Of a DNA stretch of 64,000 nt, positions 2,468 through 55,903 are shown piece by piece. The notes below the pieces were generated by a model. The model searched no databases and had not been told where the DNA came from. It saw only the letters and a list, made by a program, of their open reading frames with translations. Numbering within the stretch: the stretch's first letter is position 1; every line of letters starts with the position of its first letter. The DNA is from Clostridia bacterium (GTDB taxonomy: Bacteria > Bacillota > Clostridia > Christensenellales > Aristaeellaceae). A program made the position numbers and the translations under genes. The stretch covers positions 28,366 to 92,365 of the forward strand of contig JAFSKN010000040.1 in assembly GCA_017448975.1 (NCBI GenBank), in the 5' to 3' direction.

Positions 2468-4222
2468 ATGACAAACGCACAGCAACAACTGCATTGGACG
2501 CGAAGCCGCTATTTTGTGCGGGGAGCATTCCGGCGGTTTTTCATCCCGGCGCTGTTCAGCAGCTTTTGGATGGCGGTGGCCGGCGTGGCGGACAGCGTGT
2601 TCGTGGGCAACGGCATCGGCACGGAGGGGCTTGCCGCCATCGGTTTCGGCCAGCCGGTCTATCTGTTTTATAATATTTTGAGCTACGGTTTTTCCATCGG
2701 CGGCTCCATCCACTACGCTTCTAAGCTGGCGGAGGGGCGCGAGGCGGAGGGCAACCGCATTTTCCATACCGTCCTGCGGCTGCTGCTGACGGTGTATCTG
2801 GCGACGGCGGCGCTGGGCCTGCTGTTTTTGCCCCAGCTCATGAGCCTGCTGGGCGCCGATCCGGCGGACGAGCTGACGCGCTCTTATATCCGCACGCAGC
2901 TGATCTTTGTTCCCATCATGTTCTGCCAGGGGCCGTTCTATTACTTCGTCAACGCCGACAACGGCCCCAAAACGGCGGCGCTGGCCATGTCGGCCTCCGG
3001 CATCCTGGATACGGTTTTCAGCTATATCTTCATCATCCAGATGGGGCTGGGCGTGCGCGGCTCCGTCTATTCCACGGTGGCGGGCGCGGCGGTGATGCTG
3101 AGCATAACCGGCTGGCACATCCTCAAGCGCCGGGGGTCGCTGCGCTTCATCTGGGCGAAGCTGGACTGGCGCGGCATCGGCCTCTCCGCCCGGACGGGCT
3201 TTGCCACCTCGCTGCAATACCTGTATCAGTTCATCACCATTATCCTGGTGAACCGCCTGCTGGTGCGCATCGGCGGCGGACTCGCCGTGGCCGCTTTCGA
3301 CGTGGTGTATAACATTTCGCTGCTGTGCGCGTCCGTTTCGGACGGAACCAACATGGCCACCGAGCCCATGCTCTCCAGCTACCGCAGCGAACGCAACCTT
3401 GGCAATGTGCGCATCACGCTGGGGCTTTCGCTGCTGTGGTCCGGCGTCATTTCCCTGGTGTTCGCCGCCGCGCTGACGCTCTTTGCGCCCCAGCTGTGCG
3501 CCGTGTTCGGCATGGGCGGGGGCGTGGAGGCGTCGTACACACAGGCGGGCATCCGCATCTTCGCGCTCAGCGTTCTGCCCGCCATGGTCAACGCGGTGTT
3601 CTGCGGATATTACCAGTCCATTCTGCGGGAGTGGCTGTCGTACCTCATTACGTTCCTTCGTTCGTTCGTGTTCTATCTGCTGGCGCTGTTGATTCTGGGC
3701 CAGGGTGGCATGTCCGCTTTCTGGTACGTCTTTGTCACGGCGGAGGCTTTGTCCTTCCTGGTGTGGGTGCCCGTGGCCATCGTCCGGGGCGGCTTTCTCC
3801 AGCTTCGGGATATCGATGTCAGCGGCACAAAGAGCGTGGTGATCGAGCAGTCCTCCCAGTCCATTTCCGATGTGGTGCAGCAGATTCAATCCTTCTGCGA
3901 GGAGAGGGGCACGGGCTCCAAGCAGGTCATGTACATCGGCCTGACCATTGAGGAAGTCTGCTGTGTCATCGTGGAGCACTGCAAGGAGCAGATGGGGGAT
4001 ATTTACATTCAGGTGACGGTGGTGGTGGAAGGCGGCGACACGGCGCTGTTCCTGCGGGACAACGCCTTTGCCTATAACCCCCTGGGAACGAACACGGACG
4101 CGGACGACCTGACCGCCGAGGAACAGGCGGAGCTGCTGGGCGTGCGCATCGTGCAGAAATCGGCCAAGGAATTTTATTACAGGCGTTATTCCGGGTTCAA
4201 TACACTGGTGATCCGGCTGTGA
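2468..4222 (+). CDS. MATE-type transporter fused to a degenerate RsbW-like ATPase domain
   Basis: Residues ~20-445 are a twelve-helix MATE/MatE transporter (for example FSSFWMAVAGVADSVFVGNG at the N-terminus), expected to use an ion gradient to export a small molecule. Residues ~452-584 form a separate cytosolic domain that resembles the HATPase_c_2 fold of anti-sigma kinases (IGLTIEEVCCVIVEHC near residue 490, LRDNAFAYNPL, ELLGVRIVQ). Key ATP/Mg ligands look altered: the N-box Asn is Val, and the first glycine box lacks its glycines. The 584-residue length exceeds a normal MATE (~450) by this domain. The next gene, 9 nt downstream, encodes a SpoIIE-type phosphatase, so the two probably work together. 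An ACGGAG ribosome binding site supports the ATG at 2468. Confidence 0.85.
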   Translation: MTNAQQQLHWTRSRYFVRGAFRRFFIPALFSSFWMAVAGVADSVFVGNGIGTEGLAAIGFGQPVYLFYNILSYGFSIGGSIHYASKLAEGREAEGNRIFHTVLRLLLTVYLATAALGLLFLPQLMSLLGADPADELTRSYIRTQLIFVPIMFCQGPFYYFVNADNGPKTAALAMSASGILDTVFSYIFIIQMGLGVRGSVYSTVAGAAVMLSITGWHILKRRGSLRFIWAKLDWRGIGLSARTGFATSLQYLYQFITIILVNRLLVRIGGGLAVAAFDVVYNISLLCASVSDGTNMATEPMLSSYRSERNLGNVRITLGLSLLWSGVISLVFAAALTLFAPQLCAVFGMGGGVEASYTQAGIRIFALSVLPAMVNAVFCGYYQSILREWLSYLITFLRSFVFYLLALLILGQGGMSAFWYVFVTAEALSFLVWVPVAIVRGGFLQLRDIDVSGTKSVVIEQSSQSISDVVQQIQSFCEERGTGSKQVMYIGLTIEEVCCVIVEHCKEQMGDIYIQVTVVVEGGDTALFLRDNAFAYNPLGTNTDADDLTAEEQAELLGVRIVQKSAKEFYYRRYSGFNTLVIRL

Positions 4223-4231
4223 GGTGAGAAG

Positions 4232-5860
4232 ATGAAACAGAACGAAAAAAAGGCGAAGAAGAAAAAGATGTTTCCCCTCAGTAGGAAGCTGGCGCTGATG
4301 GTGGCGGCCATCACCCTCTCTTTGAGCGCGGTGATGATCGTGCTGAGCTATGAGCATTACAAAACCGAAATGTACGCCCACTACGAGGAGTTCGCCATGA
4401 ACGTGGGCGCGGTGGCGGCGTCCCAGCTGGACCCGGACAGGATCCAGTATTACCTGGACACAGGCGAAAAGGACGAGGCCTATGAAACGGCGTACAAAAC
4501 GCTGTGCGATATCCGGGAAAACGGCGGCGTGATGTACCTGTACGTCGTCAAGCCGGAGAGGTACGAGGTGTGGTACGTTCTGGACACCGACCCCACGGAG
4601 AACGCCATCCCCCTGGGCTATCACGAGCCGTACTATCAGGGGGCGTTCGCCGAAAACGCCGAGCGCCTGGCGCGGGGCGAACGCATTGAGCCGCTGGTCA
4701 GCAACGAGCAGTTCGGCTGGCTGATGAGCGTATACTATCCCATGAAGACCTCGTCCGGCGCGCCCGCGGGCTATGTGGGCGTGGATATCCAGATGACCGA
4801 CGTGATGAACGATCTGGGCCGTTTCGCGCGGCAAATGATCCTGCTGATGGCCGCGCTGACGGTGGCCTTCTCCCTGGTGTTCATCCGCATCACGACCGCC
4901 ACCATGGCAAAGCCCATCAACCGGCTGTCGGCCGCGGCGGAAAAGCTGGTAGAAGAGCAATCCAGCGAGGGAACGGAGACGTCCATCTTCAATCAGCTCA
5001 CCATTCGTTCCAACGACGAAGTGGGCGCGCTGTATGGGAGCCTCTCCCAGATGGAACACGACATGAACGCCTATATCCGCAATCTGGTGAGCGTGACGGC
5101 GGAGAAGGAACGCATCGGCGCGGAGCTGAACGTGGCCACGCAGATCCAGGCGGATATGCTGCCGCGGATCTTCCCCGCGTTCCCCGACCGCAGGGAATTT
5201 GACATCTACGCCAGCATGACTCCCGCCAAAGAGGTGGGCGGCGACTTCTATGATTTCTTCCTGGTGGACGACGACCATATCGGCCTGGTGATGGCGGACG
5301 TTTCCGGCAAGGGCGTTCCCGCCGCGCTGTTCATGGTGATCGCCAAGACGCTCATCAAGAACCGGGCCATGATGGGTGAAAGCCCCGCGGAGGTCCTGCG
5401 GCATGTGAACGAACAGCTTTGGGAGGGCAACGAAGCGGAGCTGTTCGTTACCGTATGGCTGGCGGTGATCGAAATTTCCACCGGCAAGGGCCTGGCCGCC
5501 AACGCCGGGCATGAGCATCCCGCGCTCCGCCGGGCGGACGGCAGCTATGAGCTTGTGGTTTACCGCCATTCCCCAGCCGTGGCGACCCTGGACACCATCC
5601 GATTCCGGGAGCATGCCTTTGAGCTCTATCCCGGCGACACGCTGTTCGTGTATACCGACGGGGTGACGGAGGCCACCAACGCCAGGAATGAGCTCTTCGG
5701 CACGGACCGCATGCTGGCCGCCCTGAACAGTGACCTCGACGCTTCGCCCCAGCAGCTGCTGACGAACGTGCGGGCAAGGATCGATTCCTTCGTGGACACC
5801 GCGCCGCAGTTTGACGATATCACCATGCTGGCCTTCCATTATTCCGGGCCGGAAAAATAA
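4232..5860 (+). CDS. Membrane sensor with SpoIIE/RsbU-type PP2C phosphatase domain
   Basis: This 542-residue protein has a lysine-rich start, membrane helices near 20-41 and 200-222, and an extracytoplasmic sensor region of about 155 residues between them (Cache-like by layout). A HAMP segment to about 275 and a short linker lead to a PPM/SpoIIE phosphatase domain (~305-540). Metal-binding aspartates are visible in EVGGDFYDFF (~334), ADVSGKGVPAALFM (~355) and YTDGVTEA (~473). The family dephosphorylates a serine on a STAS-domain antagonist. A STAS protein and an ATPase-like partner are encoded at 57323-58173, and the upstream gene carries a fused ATPase-like domain. The gene follows the MATE fusion by 9 nt with a GAGGTGAG ribosome binding site. 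Confidence 0.9.
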   Translation: MKQNEKKAKKKKMFPLSRKLALMVAAITLSLSAVMIVLSYEHYKTEMYAHYEEFAMNVGAVAASQLDPDRIQYYLDTGEKDEAYETAYKTLCDIRENGGVMYLYVVKPERYEVWYVLDTDPTENAIPLGYHEPYYQGAFAENAERLARGERIEPLVSNEQFGWLMSVYYPMKTSSGAPAGYVGVDIQMTDVMNDLGRFARQMILLMAALTVAFSLVFIRITTATMAKPINRLSAAAEKLVEEQSSEGTETSIFNQLTIRSNDEVGALYGSLSQMEHDMNAYIRNLVSVTAEKERIGAELNVATQIQADMLPRIFPAFPDRREFDIYASMTPAKEVGGDFYDFFLVDDDHIGLVMADVSGKGVPAALFMVIAKTLIKNRAMMGESPAEVLRHVNEQLWEGNEAELFVTVWLAVIEISTGKGLAANAGHEHPALRRADGSYELVVYRHSPAVATLDTIRFREHAFELYPGDTLFVYTDGVTEATNARNELFGTDRMLAALNSDLDASPQQLLTNVRARIDSFVDTAPQFDDITMLAFHYSGPEK

Positions 5861-6085: not shown

Positions 6086-7021
6086 ATGGAGGAACAGAAA
6101 AAAAGGCTCGTTACCCGCAGTGATTTTGACGGGCTGGCATGCGCTATGATGATGCGGGAGATGGGCTTGATCGACCAGATCAAGTTCGTGCATCCCAAGG
6201 ACGTGCAGGACGGCAAAATCGAACTGTCCAAAAATGATATCACCACCAATCTGCCCTATGATCCCCGGGTGGATCTGGCCTTTGACCACCACGAATCCGA
6301 AATGGACCGCCTGAAAGCGCAGGAAACCGGCGGCAAGCTGATCATCGATCCCAACGCCCGCAGCGCCGCCCGGGTGGTGTACGATTATTACGGCGGCAAG
6401 GCCACCTTCCCCCATATCAGCGACGATCTCATGGCCGCCGTAGACAAGGGCGACAGCGCCGACTTTACTTTGGAAGAAATTCTGAATCCCAAGGGCTGGG
6501 TGCTGCTGCATTACCTGATGGACCCCCGCACGGGCTTAGGCCGCTTCCGCAATTTCCGCATTTCCAACTATGATCTGATGATGGAATTGATCGGCTACTG
6601 CATGAATCATTCCATCGACGAGATTTTGGAGCTGCCCGACGTGAGGGAGCGCGTGGACCTGTACTTCCAGCAGGCGGAGCTGTTCAAGGAACAGTTAAAG
6701 CGCCTGGCGAAGCTGGAAGGCAAAGTGGTGGTGCTGGATCTGCGCAATGAAGAAATCATCCACGCGGGCAACCGCTTCATGATTTACGCCCTCTACCCCG
6801 AAGCCCAGATTTCCGTTCACGTGGCCTGGGGCTTCCAGAAGCAGAACACCGCCGTCATGATCGGCAAATCCATTGTGAACAAGGCGTCTCAGGCCGATAT
6901 CGGCGAACTGTGCCTGAAATACGGCGGCGGCGGCCACCACAACGCCGGCACCTGCCAGCTGGACAACGATAAGGTGGATCAGGAGCTGCCCAACATTGTG
7001 GCGGCGCTGAACGCCGAGTAA
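6086..7021 (+). CDS. DHH/DHHA1-family phosphoesterase
   Basis: This 311-residue protein shows the DHH superfamily layout. An N-terminal TRSDFDGLACAMMM supplies the metal-binding DxD-like motif, DHHES near residue 70 is the signature, and a C-terminal DHHA1 domain ends in GGGGHHNAGTCQL. Family members hydrolyse phosphodiester or phosphoanhydride bonds (oligoribonucleotides, cyclic dinucleotide products, polyphosphate). Which substrate applies here cannot be decided. It has its own promoter and a terminator and is the gene immediately left of the replication origin. The ribosome binding site AGGAGG lies just upstream of the ATG. Confidence 0.85.
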   Translation: MEEQKKRLVTRSDFDGLACAMMMREMGLIDQIKFVHPKDVQDGKIELSKNDITTNLPYDPRVDLAFDHHESEMDRLKAQETGGKLIIDPNARSAARVVYDYYGGKATFPHISDDLMAAVDKGDSADFTLEEILNPKGWVLLHYLMDPRTGLGRFRNFRISNYDLMMELIGYCMNHSIDEILELPDVRERVDLYFQQAELFKEQLKRLAKLEGKVVVLDLRNEEIIHAGNRFMIYALYPEAQISVHVAWGFQKQNTAVMIGKSIVNKASQADIGELCLKYGGGGHHNAGTCQLDNDKVDQELPNIVAALNAE

Positions 7022-7038
7022 TTTCATCCCTTGCGTTT

Positions 7039-7072
7039 TCCTCGGATCGTTCCGGCGATCCGGGGTTTTTTA
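7039..7072 (+). terminator. Rho-independent terminator of the DHH gene
   Basis: The stem CGGATCG / CGATCCG with a short loop is followed by GGGG and six T residues. Confidence 0.8.
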
Positions 7073-7571
7073 TGTTCCCGTTGCCATTTTTGCAAGTGGA
7101 TAACCGCGTATTTTTTGTGGATAACCACGGCATAACTTCTTTTCCAGGCGCATAAAATGCAGGCAGGGCCGTCTTTTTCTTTTCCACAGGCTGTGAAAGC
7201 AGCGATTGTGGATCGTGTGGATAACCCTTTTGGATGACAAAAATGGCAAATCGCCCGTTTTCCAGTGTTTTACATTTTTAATGCGTCTTGATTTTTTTGT
7301 GAAAATATGAGACAATATCACCAGTTCCGGTTTTTCCGAAAAAGGCCATATCCTGCCCGGAAAAACGGCGCCTGCGGCGCGGGAGCGCGCGGAAAGGGCT
7401 TTTCCCCACTTTTTCCTCGTTTATCCCCATATTTATCCCAAGGGAAAAGCGTGAAAAATCAAGGGGTACACCCGCTTATCCACACTTTCCCCGGTTCTAC
7501 TACTACTACTGAATTATATATACTACTACTACTCTGGCGGCACGCGCCGCCCAAAGGGAGATGAACATGCG
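7073..7571. other. oriC: Chromosome replication origin (oriC) with DnaA boxes and DnaA-trio repeats
   Basis: This 500-bp non-coding, AT-rich stretch holds several DnaA boxes. Perfect TTATCCACA is present on the minus strand at 7116-7124 and 7216-7224 and on the plus strand at 7476-7484. Near matches lie at 7095-7103, 7180-7188 (TTTTCCACA), 7207-7215, 7421-7429 and 7433-7441. Right of the last perfect box comes a short GC-rich spacer (7485-7497) and then DnaA-trios: (TAC)4 at 7498-7509, an AT-rich GAATTATATA, and (TAC)4 again at 7521-7532. Box, GC spacer and trios match the basal unwinding system described for Bacillus subtilis oriC. dnaN starts 40 bp further right. dnaA is not in the window. 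Confidence 0.9.
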
Positions 7572-12506: not shown

Positions 12507-13892
12507 GTGGAGAAGACCAAAAAAGTCCAGCCCGGCTACGGCATCGTGGAGGGCGTGATCTGGCAGCAGCTGCTGATTTTTTTCTTTCCCATTCTGCTGG
12601 GCACGTTTTTCCAGCAGCTTTATAATACTGCCGACGCCATGATCGTGGGCAAATACGTGGGCAAGCAGGCGCTGGCGGCGGTGGGCGGCTCCACGGGCAA
12701 CCTGATCAACCTGATCGTGGGCTTTTTCGTGGGCCTGGCCTCCGGCGCGACGGTGATCATCTCCCAATTTTTCGGCGCGCGGCAGGAAAAAGAAGTTTCC
12801 CGCACGGTGCATACCGCCATCGCCCTGGCCGTGTGCATGGGCCTGGGGCTGACGGTGATCGGCTATTTTCTGTCGCCCACGTTCCTGCAATGGATGAACA
12901 CCCCGGAGGACGTGATGGAGCCCGCGGTGGCGTACATTCGCGTGTATTTCCTTGGCATGGTGCCCTCCCTGATTTACAATATCGGCTCCGGCATCCTGCG
13001 GGCGGTGGGCGATTCCCGGCGGCCCCTCTATTTCCTGATTGCCGCCTGCATGACCAATATCGTGCTGGACCTGCTGCTGGTGATCGGCGCGGACATGGGC
13101 GTGACCGGAGCGGCCCTGGCCACCATCCTCAGCCAGACGGTGAGCGCCGTGCTGGTGCTGGTGGTGCTGATGCGGTCCCATACGGCTTATCATCTGTCTC
13201 TGTCCAAAGTGCGCTTCCATGGCGATTTGCTGCGCCGGGTGGTGCAGATCGGCCTGCCCGCCGGGCTGCAATCGGTGATGTATTCCATTTCCAATGTGCT
13301 GATCCAGAGCTTTGTGAACAATTTCGGCACCGACGTGTCCGCCGCCTGGAGCGCCTGGGGCCGGCTGGACGGCCTGCAGTGGATGGTGCTGAACGCCTTC
13401 GGCATTTCCATCACCACTTTTGTGGGCCAGAACTTCGGGGCCATGAAGTTTGACCGGGTAAAGAAGGGCGTGAAGCAATGCCTGCTCATGGCCTTTGCCG
13501 CCGCCGCGTGCTGCTCCGGCATGCTCATGCTGTTCGGGCGGAGCCTTTACCACCTGTTCGCCAACGATGAAACCGTTATCGAAAAGGGCATGGAAATCCT
13601 GTGGCTCATCGCGCCCTATTACGTCACCTACACCTGCATCGAAATCCTGTCCGGCGCCATGCGCGGCGCGGGCGAGGCCCTGGCCCCCACTCTCATGACC
13701 CTGTTCGGCGTGTGCGCCCTGCGGCTGATCTGGCTGCTGGTCTTCGTCGCCCGTGACCCCACCATCCCCCGCACCATGTTCAGCTACCCCATGACCTGGA
13801 CGGTCACCTCCTGCCTGTTCATTATCTATTACTGGAAGGGCGGCTGGATGAAACGATGCCAGGAAAGGCTGATTACAAGGCTGGATAATTGA
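12507..13892 (+). CDS. MATE family efflux transporter
   Basis: A 461-residue, twelve-helix MATE transporter of normal length, with the N-terminal signature FPILLGTFFQQLYNTADAMI and the second-half equivalent IGLPAGLQSVMYSISNVLIQ. It starts at GTG 12507 with GAGG about 10 nt upstream. The C-terminus is WTVTSCLFIIYYWKGGWMKR plus eleven residues. A second, diverged copy of exactly this 3' end lies at 14557-14638, beyond the MazEF-like pair, so the toxin cassette sits at the stop codon of this gene. Substrate unknown. Confidence 0.92.
   Translation: MEKTKKVQPGYGIVEGVIWQQLLIFFFPILLGTFFQQLYNTADAMIVGKYVGKQALAAVGGSTGNLINLIVGFFVGLASGATVIISQFFGARQEKEVSRTVHTAIALAVCMGLGLTVIGYFLSPTFLQWMNTPEDVMEPAVAYIRVYFLGMVPSLIYNIGSGILRAVGDSRRPLYFLIAACMTNIVLDLLLVIGADMGVTGAALATILSQTVSAVLVLVVLMRSHTAYHLSLSKVRFHGDLLRRVVQIGLPAGLQSVMYSISNVLIQSFVNNFGTDVSAAWSAWGRLDGLQWMVLNAFGISITTFVGQNFGAMKFDRVKKGVKQCLLMAFAAAACCSGMLMLFGRSLYHLFANDETVIEKGMEILWLIAPYYVTYTCIEILSGAMRGAGEALAPTLMTLFGVCALRLIWLLVFVARDPTIPRTMFSYPMTWTVTSCLFIIYYWKGGWMKRCQERLITRLDN
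13798..13879 (+). repeat. Direct repeat A1: 3' end of the MATE gene
   Basis: These 82 bp (coding, end of the MATE gene) recur at 14557-14638 with 10 mismatches and no gaps. About half of the codon changes are synonymous. Confidence 0.9.
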
Positions 13893-13940: not shown

Positions 13941-13963
13941 ATAGGAAAAAGGGGGAATTGCTC

Positions 13964-14209
13964 ATGACACAGGTTTTGATTCAGAAATGGGGGAACAGCC
14001 AGGGTGTCCGGCTGCCGAAAGTGGTTTTAAACGCCGCCAATCTGCGGGAAAATGACACGGTGGCCGTTTTTGTGGATAAAAACAGTATCATGCTCCGCAA
14101 GGTCGAGCCCCATCGGACGCTGGATGATCTTTTCGCCGGGTATGACGGGGATTATCGCCCCATCGAGTTCGACACCGGCGCGGACGTTGGATTGGAGGCG
14201 TTCGACTGA
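13964..14209 (+). CDS. MazE/AbrB-type antitoxin
   Basis: An 81-residue protein with a SpoVT-AbrB swapped-hairpin DNA-binding fold: QVLIQKWGNSQGVRLPKVVL followed by a short beta region, as in MazE antitoxins. The C-terminal tail (DDLFAGYDGDYRPIEFD) is acidic and would wrap around the toxin. ATG 13964 is preferred over the in-frame TTG at 13958 because GGGGG lies 8 nt upstream. The stop overlaps the toxin start (ATGA at 14206-14211), the usual translational coupling. It probably represses the promoter at 13912 together with the toxin. Confidence 0.9.
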   Translation: MTQVLIQKWGNSQGVRLPKVVLNAANLRENDTVAVFVDKNSIMLRKVEPHRTLDDLFAGYDGDYRPIEFDTGADVGLEAFD

Positions 14210-14547
14210 TGGCCGAATACCGTCCGCAGCAGGGCGATATCGTCATGCTGAATTTTACGCCCCAGGCCGGTCATGAACAGGCAGGACGACGGCCCGCCCT
14301 GGTAATCAGCAACGCCAGCTTTCACCGCTATACCGGGCTGGCGATTTTCTGTCCCATCACCAACCAAATCAAGAATTATCCCCTGCACGTCAAACTGGAC
14401 GGCAGAACCCGAATAACCGGTGAAATCCTGTGCGAGCATGTGAAATCCCTGGATTATAAGGCAAGACAAATCGCTTTTGTGGAAACGCTGCCGGAAGATT
14501 TGCTTTATGACGTGCTGGAGCGTGTGAGGATGTCGCTGGAATCCTAA
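14209..14547 (+). CDS. MazF/PemK-type endoribonuclease toxin
   Basis: This 112-residue protein has the CcdB/PemK barrel signature: QGDIVMLNFTPQAGHEQAGR, RPALVISNASFHRY, ITNQIKNYPLHVKL and ILCEHVKSLDYKARQIAFVE. It would cut mRNA at short sequence motifs when the MazE-like partner is degraded. It appears intact, with the conserved Arg in GRRPALV and Thr/Ser in PIT. Nine nucleotides after its stop begins the second copy of the MATE 3' end. Confidence 0.92.
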   Translation: MAEYRPQQGDIVMLNFTPQAGHEQAGRRPALVISNASFHRYTGLAIFCPITNQIKNYPLHVKLDGRTRITGEILCEHVKSLDYKARQIAFVETLPEDLLYDVLERVRMSLES

Positions 14548-14556
14548 GAGCACAGG

Positions 14557-14638
14557 GGACGGTCACTTCCTGCCTGTTCATTGTGTACTACTGGAAAGGC
14601 GGCTGAATGAAATGGTGCAAGGAAAGGCTGATTACGAG
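14557..14638 (+). pseudogene. Direct repeat A2: duplicated 3' end of a MATE gene behind the toxin cassette
   Basis: In the MATE frame it reads TVTSCLFIVYYWKGG, a TGA where copy A1 has TGG, then MKWCKERLIT. Relative to 13798-13879 there are 10 differences in 82 bp; five codon changes are synonymous, so the copy evolved as coding sequence before being left here without a 5' part. The remaining bases to 14820 show no gene apart from this fragment. Confidence 0.85.
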
Positions 14639-50153: not shown

Positions 50154-50954
50154 ATGGACACCCTGAAATTATACTGGAAATCCATGGGCATTCTGATGAA
50201 AAGCCAATTGCAGTACCCCGCCTCCTTCGTCATGCAGACGATCGCCCAGCTGGTCATGGAGGGGGGCGAGCTGCTGGCGGTGATCCTGATCGTGGACCGG
50301 TTCGATTCCCTGAACCAGTGGATGCCCGGCGACCTGTATTTCTTTTTCGGCATGATGTCCGTCACCTTTTACCTGACGGAGTTTTTGGGGCGGGGCGTTA
50401 CCGGAGCCTTTCCCAGCATGGTGCGCTCCGGGCAATTGGACACCCTGCTTTTGCGCCCCCGGGGCGTGCTGACGCAGGTGCTTTGCAGCGCCATCGACCC
50501 CCGCCGCGTCGCCTGCATCGCCGTGGGCACGGCGGCGCTGATCTTAGGCAGCAAGATGGCAGGGGTAGAATGGACGCTGCTCAAAGCCCTGGCCCTTTCG
50601 GAATCCATCCTGTTAGGCGTGATGCTGGTGCTGGGTCTGTTTTTGATCGAAGCGGTGCTGTGCATCCATTCCGTGAAATCCGTGGAACTGACCAACGCCC
50701 TCACCTACGGCGGCCGCAGCGCCTGCCAGTACCCCATCGACATTTTCCCCCGTCCCCTGCGGGTGCTGTTCACGGTGGTGGCGCCCTTCGCCCTCACCCT
50801 CCACGTGCCCGCCGCCTACATCTTAGGCAAGCCCCTCTACGGCTGGCCCGCCTGGACGGCGTTCGTCACCCCCCTGGCCGGGGCCGCCGCGTTCTGGATT
50901 TTGTACGCCGTGTTTCAAAAGGCCATGAAGTTTTACCGGTCTACGGGGAACTGA
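50154..50954 (+). CDS. ABC-2 permease, DUF990-type (second)
   Basis: A 266-residue membrane protein, MDTLKLYWKSMGILMKSQLQ at the start, with helices throughout and the family stretch SVKSVELTNALTYGGRSACQ. It is the partner of the permease at 48942-49733. ATG 50154 follows GGAGG at 5 nt. The last 36 codons (PAWTAFVTPLAGAAAFWILY onwards) recur at 51925-52032 behind the GNAT toxin cassette. Confidence 0.92.
   Translation: MDTLKLYWKSMGILMKSQLQYPASFVMQTIAQLVMEGGELLAVILIVDRFDSLNQWMPGDLYFFFGMMSVTFYLTEFLGRGVTGAFPSMVRSGQLDTLLLRPRGVLTQVLCSAIDPRRVACIAVGTAALILGSKMAGVEWTLLKALALSESILLGVMLVLGLFLIEAVLCIHSVKSVELTNALTYGGRSACQYPIDIFPRPLRVLFTVVAPFALTLHVPAAYILGKPLYGWPAWTAFVTPLAGAAAFWILYAVFQKAMKFYRSTGN
50847..50954 (+). 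repeat. Direct repeat B1: 3' end of the second permease gene
   Basis: 108 bp of coding sequence including the stop. It recurs at 51925-52032 with 7 mismatches and no gaps. Confidence 0.93.
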
Positions 50955-51003
50955 AAGAAAAAATAGTTTACAAAAAGTTTACAAGAATGCCGAGGAAAAT
51001 GAG

Positions 51004-51032
51004 TTGACAATGGCAAAAATACTGCTTATAAT
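51004..51032 (+). promoter_or_regulatory. Consensus sigma-A promoter of the GNAT toxin cassette
   Basis: TTGACA (51004-51009), 17 bp, TATAAT (51027-51032), perfect consensus, 50 bp after the permease stop. Confidence 0.9.
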
Positions 51033-51122
51033 AAAATACCAATTTTGAACGATTTGGTTTTCGCTTGTCCGGATAATACAAGCGCAGGAATCAAAGACTG
51101 GAAGGAGACAGGAGGCGGTTGT

Positions 51123-51329
51123 ATGGCTACAAGCAGCATTTCCGAAACGGTCTATATTAAAGACCGAAAGAAAATTGCCCGTTTTGTAAAAGCGCTGGAG
51201 CAATCAAAAGCGTCAAAGGCAAAAGAAATCGTCTTTTCCAGGCCCGTTGAACAAATCACCGATCCGGCGGCCATACGGAAGATATTTGGAGATACGAACA
51301 ATGACGGGTTACAAGATCATCACAATTGA
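51123..51329 (+). CDS. Small antitoxin-like protein upstream of a GNAT toxin
   Basis: A 68-residue protein, MATSSISETVYIKDRKKIAR at the start (ribosome binding site GGAGGCGG) and a DPAAIRKIFGDT motif near the C-terminus. Its size, position and 29-nt overlap with the acetyltransferase gene are those of antitoxins of GNAT-type modules, which bind promoter DNA through an N-terminal fold. No known antitoxin family is identified with certainty. Confidence 0.65.
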   Translation: MATSSISETVYIKDRKKIARFVKALEQSKASKAKEIVFSRPVEQITDPAAIRKIFGDTNNDGLQDHHN

Positions 51330-51888
51330 CAGCCTGATTGAATCCATTGGAGAGGAAGCGCTAAATGCCATCCTCTCCAATTATTCTTGTCCGATGAATA
51401 CCGACATAGAGGATTTTCTTCACAATAAGGCGGTGACCTTCTCCCGGCAAGGATTAGCGAAGACACATCTTGTTTTCACAAGCTATAAGGGAAATGTGGT
51501 GCTTGCCGGTTACTTTTCGCTTGCAAACAAAACGCTGTTTATCCCTGATAAAGCCAGGATGGGCGCAAGCCTGAAAAAACGGCTTGCCAAGTTTTCCACC
51601 CGCATCCCGGAAACAAAAATGACCATACTTTCCGCACCGCTGATCGCCCAGCTTGGGAAAAACTATACCAACGGATATGACGCTTTAATCACCGGGGACG
51701 AACTGCTGAAAATGGCCTGCGATATTATTCAGACCATGCAGCTTGCGTTAGGCGGAAAGGCCGTTTATCTTGAATGTGCCCCCGCTCCCGGACTGATTCA
51801 CTTTTACGAGGAAAACGGTTTTCAAGTCTTTTCAGAAAGAATCACCGAACATTCTGAAACGCTGGTGCAAATGATTCGGTATTTCTAA
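51301..51888 (+). CDS. GNAT-family acetyltransferase, probable toxin
   Basis: A 195-residue protein. After an N-terminal helical part (IEDFLHNKAVTFSRQGLAKT) comes a GNAT core: VVLAGYFSLANKTLFIP (strand 4), LIAQLGKNYTNGY (acetyl-CoA loop region), YLECAPAPGLIHFYEENGFQ (strand 5 and helix). GNAT toxins of two-gene modules acetylate charged tRNA. The start ATG 51301 has GGAG at 10 nt and overlaps the small upstream gene by 29 nt. The pair sits between two copies of a permease 3' end. A free metabolic acetyltransferase cannot be excluded. Confidence 0.75.
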   Translation: MTGYKIITIDSLIESIGEEALNAILSNYSCPMNTDIEDFLHNKAVTFSRQGLAKTHLVFTSYKGNVVLAGYFSLANKTLFIPDKARMGASLKKRLAKFSTRIPETKMTILSAPLIAQLGKNYTNGYDALITGDELLKMACDIIQTMQLALGGKAVYLECAPAPGLIHFYEENGFQVFSERITEHSETLVQMIRYF

Positions 51889-51924
51889 TCATTTAATCAG
51901 GATTGGTTCTTCGGCTCTGACTCG

Positions 51925-52032
51925 CCCACCTGGACGGCCTTCGTCACTCCCCTGGCCGGGGCCGCCGCGTTCTGGATGCTGTACGCCGTGTTTCAAAAGG
52001 CCATGAAGTTTTACCGGTCTACGGGAAGCTGA
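51925..52032 (+). pseudogene. Direct repeat B2: duplicated 3' end of the permease gene behind the GNAT cassette
   Basis: It reads PTWTAFVTPLAGAAAFWMLY and on to YRSTGS plus TGA in the permease frame, 36 codons with intact stop. There are seven differences from 50847-50954 in 108 bp, four of them in synonymous codon changes. The fragment has no 5' part and no start. Confidence 0.92.
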
Positions 52033-52088
52033 ACGCGCCTCCCTGCGTATTATTAATGGAAAGATTCGCAGCAAAAGGAGGAACGGGT

Positions 52089-52697
52089 ATGAAAAGATTC
52101 TGTGCGGCCGTGCTGGCATTGCTATTGGCAATCCAGGCGTTTCCCGTGCGCGCGGAGGAAGGCCGCATATATTATTACAATACCAAAGGCGGTGGACGCC
52201 GCCTGCATACTGATCCCGAATGTCCCACCATTTCGGATTATCTGCGTCCCCTGACAGCGCTGACGGAGACAGAAGTCCGTCATCCTCGATTCAGGGACAT
52301 GGCCATGTGTACGGTTTGCTCAAACGGGCTGGAAGCGCCGCCGTCGGACGAGTTCGCCTTTGCTTTGCTGCCCGTACAGGAAAAAGCAGCGCAGAGCAAC
52401 GGAATCTACACGCTGCCGGGAACCGATATGATTCAGCCGGATGAAGCGTTTTCACAAGTGGCAGTTTTGATGATGGTCCAATTGTCTTTGCTCAGATCAG
52501 ACGCGGTCCATGGCCTTTATATGATCTATTACTACCCGGAAAGCGCCCGGTATGGGAGGCCGTATTACGATTTCACAGTCATGCGGGAAACCCATGGCAC
52601 GTTTTCAGAAGATTTTTCCTTAAAAACCCTGGGATACATCGCCCTGGATGCCGAAACAAAAAAACTGCTGTATGCAGAGCGGTTCACGGATGACTGA
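52089..52697 (+). CDS. Secreted protein with His/Cys metal-site motif
   Basis: A 202-residue exported protein: signal peptide MKRFCAAVLALLLAIQAFPV plus RA, then a domain with LHTDPECPTISDYLRPLTAL and MCTVCSNG, an H-x3-C...C-x2-C pattern as seen in small metal-binding modules of bacterial surface proteins. The remainder is beta-rich with DFTVMRETHGTFSEDFSLKT. ATG 52089 follows AAAGGAGG at 6 nt; a longer in-frame ATG at 52056 is discarded. Function unknown. Confidence 0.75.
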   Translation: MKRFCAAVLALLLAIQAFPVRAEEGRIYYYNTKGGGRRLHTDPECPTISDYLRPLTALTETEVRHPRFRDMAMCTVCSNGLEAPPSDEFAFALLPVQEKAAQSNGIYTLPGTDMIQPDEAFSQVAVLMMVQLSLLRSDAVHGLYMIYYYPESARYGRPYYDFTVMRETHGTFSEDFSLKTLGYIALDAETKKLLYAERFTDD

Positions 52698-52749
52698 AAA
52701 AACGGAACGCAGGGAACCGTTCCCTGTGCTGGGAAAGGGGGAATAAAGG

Positions 52750-53475
52750 ATGCCCGCCATCACCACCCAGGCCATCGTGCTGCGCCACGCGGATTACCGG
52801 GAGCATGACCGGATGCTCACTTTGCTTTCCCCGTCCATGGGGCGGATCGAGGCACTGTGCCGGGGCTGCAAGCGGCCTCAAAGTCCGTTGCTTTCGGCCA
52901 GCGAATGGTTCGCCTTAGGGGAATATGTGCTGTTCGCGGGCAAGGGGCACATGACCGTGACCTCCTGCAACCTGACGGAGAGCTTCTTCCCCCTGCGCAC
53001 GGATTACGACCGGCTGAAGCACGCCACCTATCTGCTGTCCGTGGCGGAGGCCGCCGCCCAGCCGGGGGAGCGGGCGGTGGAGCTGTTCACGCTGCTGGCC
53101 CGGTCGCTCTCCCGTTTGGCGTACACCGACCGGGACGCCCAGGCCGTTTCCGCCGCGTTCCTGCTGCATTTTTCCGCCATCAGCGGCTACCGGCCCCGGC
53201 TTTCCCATTGCGTGCGCTGCGGCAGGGAAATGCAGGACGGGGAGATCCGCCTGTTCGATATTGAAAACGGCGGCCTGCTGTGCGAAAAATGCGCTGCCGG
53301 ACTGACCCAGGCCCACCCCGTCACCCCGGATCAGGTGCGCTGGATGCGGGACGTGCTGGCCCGGGGCATCGACAAAACCGACCAGTCCCCCCAAAACGCC
53401 CCCGGCCCGCTGCTGGCCGCCTACGTGGGCGAACGATTGGAAAAGCCCCTCGTACAGGAAGGGCTTTGGAAGTGA
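52750..53475 (+). CDS. recO: DNA repair protein RecO
   Basis: A 241-residue RecO: N-terminal OB fold (TQAIVLRHADYREHDRMLTL, MGRIEALCRGCKRP), a helical middle, and a zinc site made by CVRCGRE (~155) and CEKCAAG (~177). RecO loads RecA with RecF/RecR and anneals single strands. The gene stands between a secreted protein and yabP; in many Bacillota it neighbours era and glyS instead. GGGGGAATAAAGG precedes the ATG. Confidence 0.93.
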   Translation: MPAITTQAIVLRHADYREHDRMLTLLSPSMGRIEALCRGCKRPQSPLLSASEWFALGEYVLFAGKGHMTVTSCNLTESFFPLRTDYDRLKHATYLLSVAEAAAQPGERAVELFTLLARSLSRLAYTDRDAQAVSAAFLLHFSAISGYRPRLSHCVRCGREMQDGEIRLFDIENGGLLCEKCAAGLTQAHPVTPDQVRWMRDVLARGIDKTDQSPQNAPGPLLAAYVGERLEKPLVQEGLWK

Positions 53476-54300: not shown

Positions 54301-54735
54301 GTTTTCTCAGGGGCCTCCGCGGCCCCAGTTCCGCAGCCTCAAAGGTCACAACTCCCCTTCATGGGGAGATTGCTCCCTTTCGGCTGATCTCACCGCCGAT
54401 GAGATTTCCGCCACAGGCGGTCATCGGCGGTTCGTCCCCGCGGCAGGGGACTTCGCCCCCTGCACCCCGTCAGGCGATTTACAAACGGATAAAACAAACA
54501 ATACGCGCCAGCTTAGAAAAAATCATATAACAAGCTCCTGGGCATAGAAAAACGAGGATATGACCAGGAAAAAGCTCGCTTTTTCCCTGGCATATTCCTC
54601 GTTTTTCAGGTGCGCTTCGCGCAAAATGGGCGGCTTTGCCGCCCGCCCAGGAGCGATGATCGTCGTCCCGAGAATGGGTCCAGGGCCCAAGCGGGCCCTG
54701 GTTCAGGGGTGTGGGGGCTGAAGAAGCCCCCACGA
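54301..54735. repeat. Composite multi-hairpin intergenic element, copy 5 (second subfamily)
   Basis: Hairpin GGGGCCtccgcGGCCCC (54311-54326), structured module Z (54330-54439, minus), CAGGGGacttcgCCCCCTG (54445-54462), clover-like centre 54534-54654, and the right hairpin pair 54676-54732 (GGGCCCaagcGGGCCC, GGGGGCTgaagaAGCCCCC). The centre has outer stem GCTCCTGGGC/GCCCAGGAGC, long stem AAAAACGAGGATATG.. with AAAAAGCTCGCTTTTT tip, TGCGCttcGCGCA and GGGCGGCtttGCCGCCC. It has the same architecture as copies 1-4 with different stem sequences. Confidence 0.85.
54330..54439 (-). repeat. Structured element Z (GGGGACGAA...GGCTGCGGA family, copy 2)
   Basis: Read on the minus strand: GGGGACGAA, stem CCGCCGATGA/TCATCGGCGG around CCGCCtgtGGCGG, TGAGATCAGCCGAAA, GAGCAAT, hairpin CTCCCCatgaaGGGGAG, TTGTG, TTGAGGCTGCGGA. 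The constant blocks match X and Y, while the second hairpin differs in sequence but keeps its pairing. Confidence 0.8.
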
Positions 54736-54738
54736 TCT

Positions 54739-55425
54739 TTACTCAAACTCCACGCATCCCAAGGCCAGCAGCAGCGCCCGGTCGGCCTGGTCGCCGGGGG
54801 AAAAGCCCAAAGCGCTGCGGGCGGCCACGACGGCCCGGCGGGTGGAAGCGCCGAAGACCCCGTCCGCGCCGCCGTACAGGAAGCCTTTCTGAATCAGCCG
54901 AAGCTGCAATTGACGCACGTCGGCGCCCCGGTCCCCTTCCCGCAGGGTGCGCAGGCCCCAGTTCAGGGGGCCGTAGGGGCCGCCCTCAATGACCACCCGC
55001 GTGCCGGTGGGCACCATGGCGTAGAGCCTTTCCGCGTCGCTCACGTTCATGCGGATGCAGCCGTGAGAAGCGTTTTTGCCGATGGAGCTTGGCTTGTTGG
55101 TGCCATGGAGGCCGTAGCTGCCCCAGGGCACGTTGAGGCCCAGAAATCGGGTGCCGAAGCCGGAAAGGTCCGTCATGAACCGGGAAGTGACGCGGAACGC
55201 GCCGATGGGGGAGGGCGTGTCCCCCGCGCCCGACGCGATGGAAAACACTGCCGTCGCTTCCCCATTTTTGTACACTGTCAGGCGCTTGCTGTCCAATTCC
55301 ACCCAGATCAGCATCCGTTCCGGCCCCGCCGAGGCGGGAAGAACAGCCGCTTTTTCCCCCTGCACCCATCCCCACATGAGCAGCGCCGCCACCCCCAGCG
55401 CTGCTTTGGCCCACCGCCTGCGCAT
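54739..55425 (-). CDS. L,D-transpeptidase with peptidoglycan-binding domain
   Basis: A 228-residue exported enzyme: N-terminal signal/anchor (AALGVAALLMWGWV), YkuD catalytic domain (~residues 38-147) with the active-site HGTNKPSSIGKNASHGCIRM (His and Cys intact), and a C-terminal peptidoglycan-binding domain (LREGDRGADVRQLQLRLIQK). It would make 3-3 crosslinks or attach proteins to peptidoglycan, often during sporulation. It is bracketed by composite elements 5 and 6, with Z and Y on either side. Confidence 0.93.
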   Translation of the reverse strand: MRRRWAKAALGVAALLMWGWVQGEKAAVLPASAGPERMLIWVELDSKRLTVYKNGEATAVFSIASGAGDTPSPIGAFRVTSRFMTDLSGFGTRFLGLNVPWGSYGLHGTNKPSSIGKNASHGCIRMNVSDAERLYAMVPTGTRVVIEGGPYGPLNWGLRTLREGDRGADVRQLQLRLIQKGFLYGGADGVFGASTRRAVVAARSALGFSPGDQADRALLLALGCVEFE

Positions 55426-55480
55426 ACCGCATACACCTCCCCGGCAGGATATGCGGCGGAATAGGAAATGATGCGAGAAA

Positions 55481-55903
55481 TCAGGGGCCTCTGCGGCCCC
55501 TGAAACCCCGCAGCAGGGGACTTCGCCCCCTGCACCCCGTCAAGCAATCAGCAAACACGAAAAACTAACAATTTGCGACTGTCTGGAAAAGTTATATTGC
55601 AAGCTCCTGGGCAAAGAAAAACGAGGATATGACCAGGAAAAAGCGAGCTTTTTTCCTGGCATATTCCTCGTTTTTCAGGTGCGCGTCGCGCACCTATGGG
55701 CGGCTTTGCCGCCCGCCCAGGAGCAACGGTAGGCGACCTGGAGATGGGTCCAGGGCCCAGATGGGCCCTGGTTCGGGGGTTTGGGGGGACGAACCGCCGA
55801 TGACCGCCTGTGGCGGGAATTTCATCGGCGGTGAGATCAGCCGAAACAAGCAATCTCCGAAGGAGTTGCGCAGATTGAGGCTGCGGATGGAAGAAGCCCC
55901 CAT
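55481..55903. repeat. Composite multi-hairpin intergenic element, copy 6 (second subfamily)
   Basis: Left part 55481-55545 (CAGGGGCCtctgcGGCCCCTG, CAGGGGacttcgCCCCCTGCACCCCGTCAAG), clover-like centre 55603-55724 (GCTCCTGGGC/GCCCAGGAGC, the AAAAACGAGGATATG stem, GTGCGCgtcGCGCAC, GGGCGGCtttGCCGCCC), GGGCCCagatGGGCCC (55753-55768), module Y (55785-55887) and GAAGCCCCC. The centre is closely similar to copy 5. Confidence 0.85.
55785..55887 (+). repeat. Structured element Y (GGGGACGAA...GGCTGCGGA family, copy 3)
   Basis: GGGGACGAA, stem CCGCCGATGA/TCATCGGCGG around CCGCCtgtGGCGG, TGAGATCAGCCGAAA, AAGCAAT, the shortened hairpin CTCCgaaGGAG, TTGCG, TTGAGGCTGCGGA. Compared with X the first stem has an entirely different sequence but the same pairing. 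Confidence 0.8.

What the first reader, a model, noticed from the sequence alone, without database searches (positions are those of the whole stretch)
50847..52032. Second, unrelated toxin cassette (GNAT type) with the same 3'-end-duplicating footprint
The pair 51123-51888 has a perfect TTGACA-N17-TATAAT promoter and lies between the second ABC permease gene and a 108-bp copy of that gene's last 36 codons (7 mismatches, no gaps, mostly synonymous, stop intact). Host gene, toxin family and repeat differ from the MazEF case, yet the layout is the same: gene, stop, promoter, antitoxin, toxin, gene 3' end. Two independent cases in 64 kb suggest a general way for very small toxin-antitoxin units to move into the 3' ends of transporter genes while keeping the host gene whole.
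Basis: partly seen in the sequence, partly recalled or inferred. Interest (0 to 1): 0.92.

Follow-up and report, generated by a model that had tools for sequence, protein, structure and literature searches.

The report
Tiny toxin cassette beside duplicated gene end
A roughly 1 kb toxin–antitoxin-like gene pair sits just behind a transporter gene and is followed by a second, dead copy of that gene's last 113 bases; relatives lack it, so it is a real insertion with an unusual footprint, most likely made by ordinary recombination through the gene's own end and not by a special recombinase.

Summary
A 113-nt direct repeat (93%) of the ABC permease 3' end brackets a perfect -35/-10 promoter and two ORFs. 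In G010 the permease runs directly into the DNA that follows the distal copy; in 16 of 25 genus members with the permease, recO follows within about 10 nt. The insert has 44% GC, the permease 61%. The pair is a conserved two-gene unit: 156 of 156 relatives have a small partner just upstream. Its second protein is acetyltransferase-like and its profile weakly hits known GNAT toxins. Toxicity is untested.

Generality is partly supported. A relative between gyrA and dnaE is bracketed by a duplicated terminator hairpin. Overall 11 of 152 GNAT loci carry a bracketing repeat against 22 of 802 other genes: enriched, not TA-specific. In the genus, 57 other scanned TA loci gave no clear gene-end footprint. 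The MATE/MazEF copies carry two alleles with one switch point, and three repeats share no core beyond chance. I favour homologous recombination through the gene end with an illegitimate joint beyond the toxin (confidence 0.5).

The parts
50154..50954 (+). Host gene: second ABC-2 permease (PF06182), intact; its 3' end is the proximal copy
   Evidence: Pfam E 7e-42; match in 25 of 28 other genus genomes, none in G009, G016, G025
50843..50955 (+). Proximal copy of the repeat (functional gene end)
51004..51032 (+). Promoter TTGACA-N17-TATAAT
51123..51329 (+). 68-aa antitoxin-like small protein (phrog_3291, E 2e-8)
   Evidence: helical model, pLDDT 78; no Pfam or NCBIfam family
51304..51888 (+). 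194-aa acetyltransferase-like protein, toxin candidate (phrog_1758, E 1e-42)
   Evidence: alpha/beta model, pLDDT 96.5; weak profile hits to acetyltransferase structures including 5fvj
51889..51920 (+). 32-nt 3' tail of the inserted unit
   Evidence: sequence; alignable repeat starts at 51921
51921..52033 (+). Distal, dead copy of the permease 3' end in native context (runs into the DNA that follows the permease in G010)
52015..52775 (+). Tract with no mismatch to G010, covering ORFx (52089-52697) and the start of recO
12507..13892 (+). MATE-type transporter gene, host of the second case (type name by eye; no family model run)
13798..13879 (+). Proximal copy, MATE case
13958..14547 (+). MazEF-like unit; the MazF part matches PF02452 (G000:C64:42592-42900, E 1.4e-27)
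14557..14638 (+). Distal dead copy, MATE case; mosaic of two alleles

Best explanation
A free-standing two-gene toxin-antitoxin-like unit (promoter, 68-aa partner, acetyltransferase-like protein) entered behind the permease by ordinary recombination through the permease's own 3' end. Incoming DNA carried 'permease end + unit'. Its homologous end paired with the resident permease; its other end, just past the toxin stop, was joined illegitimately, either after the fragment circularised (single crossover) or by direct joining upstream of the resident gene's end. The host gene is rebuilt with one allele's end, the unit follows, and the other allele's end is left as a dead direct repeat, with the downstream gene untouched. 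Outcomes that keep both neighbours working survive. Because the bracket could be looped out again by homologous recombination, an addictive unit is more likely than other cargo to persist. Shown: insertion, sites without it, native distal copy, small unit, no recombinase inside it, two alleles in the MATE case. Inferred: the recombination route, the donor, addiction.
For: Site without the unit in G010 and native context of the distal copy. MATE case: of 9 sites where G025 and G005 differ, the proximal copy is G025-type at 9 of 9; the distal copy is G025-type at the first 4 and G005-type at the last 5, a single switch as expected for a crossover inside the repeat. The copies differ by 8 of 113 and 10 of 82, about as much as the species do, although the relatives lack the unit. 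None of the 11 bracketing repeats is identical. Repeats vary by locus (24-113 nt) and the permease, MATE and gyrA repeats share at most 6-7 nt. The MATE right joint reads GAGCACAGGGGACGGT|CAC against native CCTGGACGGTCACC, a 7-nt overlap (by eye). The flanks recombine: a 761-nt tract identical to G010 between flanks 12% and 5% diverged, and a different insert at the same junction in G005. Laboratory precedent: in E. coli conjugation 56 of 60 analysed clones gave a PCR product diagnostic of a duplicated homologous gene end (14 sequenced, 109-950 bp), assigned to single crossover of a recircularised molecule (PMC3240628, passages read).
Against: No donor arrangement (permease next to this unit with a single end) turned up: the toxin matched 11 of 300 family genomes, own included, and in the ten wider loci read none of the others was seen behind this gene. 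The mosaic rests on 9 sites in one case; the permease case has no clear pattern. The right joint lies very close to the toxin stop: 12 of 14 repeats begin within 80 nt although 500 nt were searched, tighter than random end joining predicts unless the moving unit already ends there (one search suggests it does). One repeat (L145, 29 nt, farther upstream) is 100% identical. Classical HFIR usually deletes recipient DNA.
Confidence: 0.5

Rival explanations
1. Long target-site duplication: the unit was inserted at a staggered break or by template switching, which duplicated the last 30-110 nt of the upstream gene in place. The dead copy then decayed, and in the MATE case the live gene was later partly replaced by an imported allele.
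For: The repeated sequence is local DNA and differs by locus. The distal copies look like decaying dead DNA: a stop in the MATE copy, 3 of 7 codon changes non-synonymous in the permease copy. The layout also occurs around non-TA genes and, in L240, at the start of a gene. L145 has an identical 29-nt pair.
Against: By eye on the 12 rows, no change is shared only by the two permease copies, as a recent in-place duplication would predict; weak, with 8 differing sites. The two MATE copies carry different alleles. None of the 11 repeats is identical.
Confidence: 0.22
2. Minimal remnant or satellite of an integrative element: attL and attR in the gene's 3' end, with the integrase lost or supplied in trans (a tiny cis-mobilizable element), like e14/phage 21 in icd (recalled).
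For: Layout: gene end rebuilt, displaced end beyond the insert. CIMEs are defined as elements that lost integration and transfer genes but keep attL and attR (PMC5704250, passages). Relatives of the pair often lie next to recombinase genes: Pfam Phage_integrase in 4 and Resolvase in 2 of 66 upstream neighbours; Resolvase in 3 and an integrase N-terminal domain in 2 of 64 downstream neighbours (no background rate was measured).
Against: The three repeats share no core beyond chance. No integrase seen within 1.5 kb behind the permease in 4 and behind MATE in 12 relatives (by eye). In L153 the integrase-like gene lies outside the bracket and in L240 the repeat contains its start (names by eye).
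Confidence: 0.2
3. REP/RAYT activity (single-strand transposition) made the MazEF case: the unit ends in half a REP-like hairpin, and a RAYT-like gene with a captured gene fragment lies on the same contig.
For: MazF and the G005 HicA both run TAAGARCACRGGGGACGGT after the stop. A 208-nt fragment of an rny-like gene, 99% identical, abuts such a sequence beside a RAYT-like gene in L098 (the names REP, RAYT and rny are recalled or by eye, untested by a model).
Against: The 8-nt motif follows only 3 of 60 toxin hits in the genus (one at +67) and 0 of 30 Nudix hits. The permease unit has no such end.
Confidence: 0.05
4. Tandem duplication of the whole permease gene followed by deletion.
For: None beyond the presence of two copies.
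Against: Only the last 113 nt are duplicated; in the own genome the permease search found one full copy and this fragment.
Confidence: 0.02

Closest known systems
Single-crossover 'lacZ-end duplication' events and homology-facilitated illegitimate recombination in E. coli conjugation (PMC3240628, passages)
   Same: Foreign DNA anchored by one homologous gene end; a 109-950 bp duplication of that end flanks the insert
   Different: There a selected plasmid in the laboratory; here a natural, minimal toxin-antitoxin-like unit, with the route inferred
Sequential displacement of T6SS effector-immunity modules in Vibrio cholerae (PMC5361080, passages)
   Same: Gene-pair insertion explained by one homologous and one illegitimate end, with the old gene end shifted downstream
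   Different: There the effector gene itself is replaced; here an unrelated host gene stays whole
Cis-mobilizable elements (PMC5704250, passages) and elements that target gene 3' ends (e14/phage 21 in icd, recalled)
   Same: Gene end rebuilt, displaced native end beyond the insert
   Different: About 1 kb, no recombinase, a different repeat at each locus
GNAT type II toxin-antitoxin systems (TacAT, PMC4942678; GNAT toxins, PMC9177977; passages)
   Same: Two-gene operon with the small gene first; profile of the second protein touches 5fvj (TacT)
   Different: The small partner matches neither DUF1778/RHH nor another named antitoxin in the libraries searched; PMC9177977 calls GNAT toxin homologues almost absent from Firmicutes, while this pair recurs in many Clostridia-type genomes and viral contigs

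Membership tests
GNAT type II toxin-antitoxin | GNAT-fold toxin related to known GNAT toxins | tested here: inconclusive
   Confident alpha/beta model, never compared with solved folds (fold search busy); profile hits E 4e-6 to 0.14 to 7 acetyltransferase chains, including 5fvj at E 0.018, which is TacT. Pfam GNAT matched 3 of 48 members weakly and not the window protein.
GNAT type II toxin-antitoxin | Small antitoxin gene directly upstream | tested here: met
   156 of 156 loci with at least 330 nt upstream, by a loose N-terminal pattern; the 160 loci form 112 clusters at 95% DNA identity. A stricter ATG-only listing missed one, L237.
GNAT type II toxin-antitoxin | DUF1778/RHH antitoxin | tested here: not met
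   No such match for the 68-aa protein; profile finds no RHH structure; helical model without a strand
GNAT type II toxin-antitoxin | Toxin stops growth, partner neutralises it | not testable with these tools
   Needs expression assays
Integrative element / CIME with att in a gene 3' end | Direct repeats that include the gene end, with an unoccupied site in relatives | tested here: met
Integrative element / CIME with att in a gene 3' end | A recombinase acting on this site, in the element or in a relative's element at the same site | tested here: not met
   None in the unit; none seen in the reading frames within 1.5 kb in 4 permease and 12 MATE relatives (by eye, no models)
Homology-facilitated illegitimate / single-crossover insertion | One joint homologous, the two gene ends from different alleles | tested here: inconclusive
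   Clear in the MATE case; no clear signal in the permease case
Homology-facilitated illegitimate / single-crossover insertion | Short microhomology at the other joint | tested here: inconclusive
   7 nt (GGACGGT) in the MATE case, read by eye; not resolvable for the permease

The most novel reading that the evidence does not exclude
Minimal toxin-antitoxin-like units spread without any recombinase by recombining through, and thereby duplicating, the last 30-110 nt of whatever gene they land behind. Their addiction then protects an otherwise excisable direct-repeat bracket, which would explain why such brackets are commoner around this pair than around other genes. The pair itself would be an undescribed Firmicutes GNAT toxin class with a new antitoxin family.
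Probability: 0.3. Interest if true: 0.75.

Novelty: new variant of a known kind. Interest (0 to 1): 0.5.

Why it matters
How chromosomal toxin–antitoxin pairs without recombinases get from place to place is poorly explained. A readable footprint (host gene end duplicated, dead copy beyond the unit) turns the question into something that can be scanned for and dated, and suggests a test: are looped-out cells missing because the pair kills them? The pair is also a candidate toxin family in Firmicutes.

Tried and rejected
Pfam, NCBIfam and PADLOC gave no family for either ORF; PHROGs gave both. I expected the distal copy to come from another species: its best match in 300 family genomes is the window's own proximal copy (93%), then G005 (92%) and G010 (90%). 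Whole-gene tandem duplication: rejected. A shared recombination core: the longest strings shared on one strand by pairs of the permease, MATE and gyrA repeats are 6-7 nt (GGACGG, GTCACC, GTCACCT), reached by 159 to 1,589 of 2,000 shuffles; the three share GTCACC. REP/RAYT as the general cause: the motif follows 3 of 60 toxin hits. ORFx as the mobile part: it occurs in G000, G005 and G010, so it is old in that clade; only its sequence was exchanged. L102's repeats are ends of neighbouring similar genes (by eye); L114's is 1.9 kb long; the 54 kb pair is dispersed (14 copies). Statistics: Fisher P 0.012 on raw counts (11 of 152 versus 22 of 802); P 1.5e-4 after collapsing TA loci to 112 clusters used hand-set control figures (14 hits, 700 non-hits) and is rough. 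Control windows have the same widths as the TA windows but lie next to single genes. An earlier, wider scan gave 14 of 151 against 9 of 320 random placements.

Full report
The last 113 nt of the permease (50843-50955) recur at 51921-52033 without gaps and with 8 mismatches. Between them lie a perfect sigma-70-type promoter and two overlapping ORFs of 68 and 194 aa. In the last 36 codons there are 7 changes, 4 synonymous and 3 not. The insert has 44% GC, against 61% for the permease and 62% for the distal copy. Random placements in the window give a median score of 20 against 186.

It is an insertion. The permease has a match in 25 of 28 other genus genomes. In 16 of these 25 recO starts within about 10 nt of the permease stop; in 6 the gap is 90-174 nt; G010 and G005 have more between; G004 shows no recO in the stretch held (tally, gaps entered by hand). 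In G010 the permease runs straight into the DNA that in the window follows the distal copy, so the distal copy is the one in native context. G005 has another insert at the same junction: a serine-hydrolase-like gene and a HicB-HicA pair, without a repeat (names by eye, except HicA, found with PF07927). ORFx, between the insertion point and recO, is present in all three genomes. Its tract 52015-52775 has no mismatch to G010, although the flanks differ at 11 of 94 and 28 of 555 positions, so DNA here is exchanged by recombination.

The MazEF case behaves alike. MazEF is absent behind MATE in G025 and G005, whose single MATE end continues into DNA matching the distal copy and about 30 nt beyond it. 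At the 9 sites where G025 and G005 differ, the proximal copy is G025-type throughout; the distal copy is G025-type at the first 4 and G005-type at the last 5. The live gene's last codons differ from the native end. The right joint shares 7 nt with the native gene (by eye).

The pair. The 68-aa protein matches phrog_3291 and the 194-aa protein phrog_1758, 'acetyltransferase'. A scan of named genomes kept the best 80 of 452 relatives and the viral scan the best 80 of 103. In 156 of 156 with enough upstream DNA a small MxT[KS]S-type ORF lies just upstream; the 160 loci form 112 clusters, one of 34 near-identical loci. The 194-aa model is confident (pLDDT 96.5) but was not compared with solved folds. 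Its profile hits 7 acetyltransferase chains (E 4e-6 to 0.14), including 5fvj, the TacT toxin. The small partner matches no RHH/DUF1778 antitoxin in the libraries searched. PMC9177977 (passages) links GNAT toxins to DUF1778 or DUF4065 and calls them almost absent from Firmicutes, so this is at best a new class. The listings of two full-text searches named no such pair; beyond passages of PMC2701414 and PMC9177977 I did not read the listed papers, and most subscription journals are not held.

Generality. A relative in G324 (L048, apparently the same contig as L118) sits between gyrA and dnaE, bracketed by a 29-nt copy of the hairpin behind gyrA (gyrase and DNA polymerase III alpha domains occur once each among the neighbours scanned). 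In the ten wider family loci only G324 has a close bracketing repeat; L056 has a 38-nt match that is a dispersed repeat, and the others have only short or distant matches. In one search, 11 of 152 GNAT loci with enough flank have a bracketing repeat at E 1e-4 or better (24-41 nt, 80-98% identity), against 22 of 802 other genes in the same loci, 8 of these 22 being near-identical viral-contig rows. In the genus, 58 TA loci (21 of 22 MazF, 8 of 9 HicA, 29 of 45 ParE matches; the rest had no locus, too little flank, or, for one HicA below its cut-off, were left out by me) and 30 Nudix genes were scanned. The window's MazEF is the only clear gene-end footprint; L296 has a 453-nt two-sided duplication around a MazF-family gene, L284 a 149-nt 70% match, and the remaining hits, 1 HicA and 2 Nudix, are 16-21 nt. 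Other genes show the same footprint: a 211-aa gene behind a lysin-like gene (L263) and a gene next to the pair in L179; a PDDEXK_2 domain was found once among the downstream neighbours scanned, which included that gene (lysin by eye).

The unit moves alone. Several pairs of loci share only the stretch from about 205-330 nt upstream of the second gene to 3-83 nt past its stop, such as L134/L137 (95.9%, 977 nt), L153/L170, L169/L182 and L156/L161. For L134/L137 other short or distant matches exist but the adjoining flanks do not align. No common terminal sequence is visible by eye. Other pairs, mostly viral, share longer stretches. Recombinase genes are among the neighbours, so some copies probably travel as cargo of integrative elements.

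Mechanism. I favour recombination through the host gene's end with an illegitimate joint at the far end of the unit. It needs no enzyme beyond the cell's own, explains why the repeat is local sequence of variable length, why the two ends can be different alleles, and why the downstream gene is spared. E. coli conjugation experiments gave the same kind of product: 56 of 60 analysed clones scored as a duplicated gene end, 109-950 bp in the 14 sequenced (PMC3240628, passages). PMC5361080 (passages) proposes a related route for effector-immunity pairs. Against it: no donor arrangement was found, and the joint lies closer to the toxin stop than free joining would predict. A long target duplication and a decayed integrative element remain open. 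The suggestion that addiction preserves excisable brackets is inference only.

Noticed in passing
L117-L276 (relatives of window 51123-51888): A pair of a 55-70 aa MATKS-type small protein and a GNAT-like protein recurs in Clostridia-type genomes and viral contigs (156 of 156 linked) and looks like an undescribed Firmicutes GNAT toxin-antitoxin class.
   Followed up: partly
L045:10517-12121 (G005): At the same permease/ORFx junction G005 carries a serine-hydrolase-like gene and a HicB-HicA pair, without a repeat: the junction is an insertion hotspot.
   Followed up: partly
window 52015-52775: 761 nt identical to G010 between flanks that differ by 12% and 5%: a recombination tract covering ORFx.
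   Followed up: yes
L098:2347-2554 and 6194-6401: A 208-nt internal fragment of an rny-like gene is duplicated (99%) beside a REP-like GGGGACGG sequence and a RAYT-like transposase gene (6451-7215, minus strand; names by eye or recalled).
   Followed up: no
window 54378-55846: Inverted arms (62 nt, 97%) and paired direct repeats bracket an L,D-transpeptidase-like gene (54739-55425, minus strand; name by eye); the repeat has 14 matches in the sampled DNA.
   Followed up: no
L263:3628-4512: A 211-aa gene behind a lysin-like gene of a viral contig is bracketed by an 84-nt copy of that gene's end plus terminator: the same footprint around an accessory gene.
   Followed up: partly
L134 and L137, around 3620-4680: A 95.9% identical GNAT unit lies in two genomes next to two different integrase-like genes (read by eye), with flanks that do not align.
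   Followed up: partly
L296 (G004): A 453-nt, 88% direct repeat lies on both sides of a MazF-family gene; probably a gene duplication around a toxin gene.
   Followed up: no
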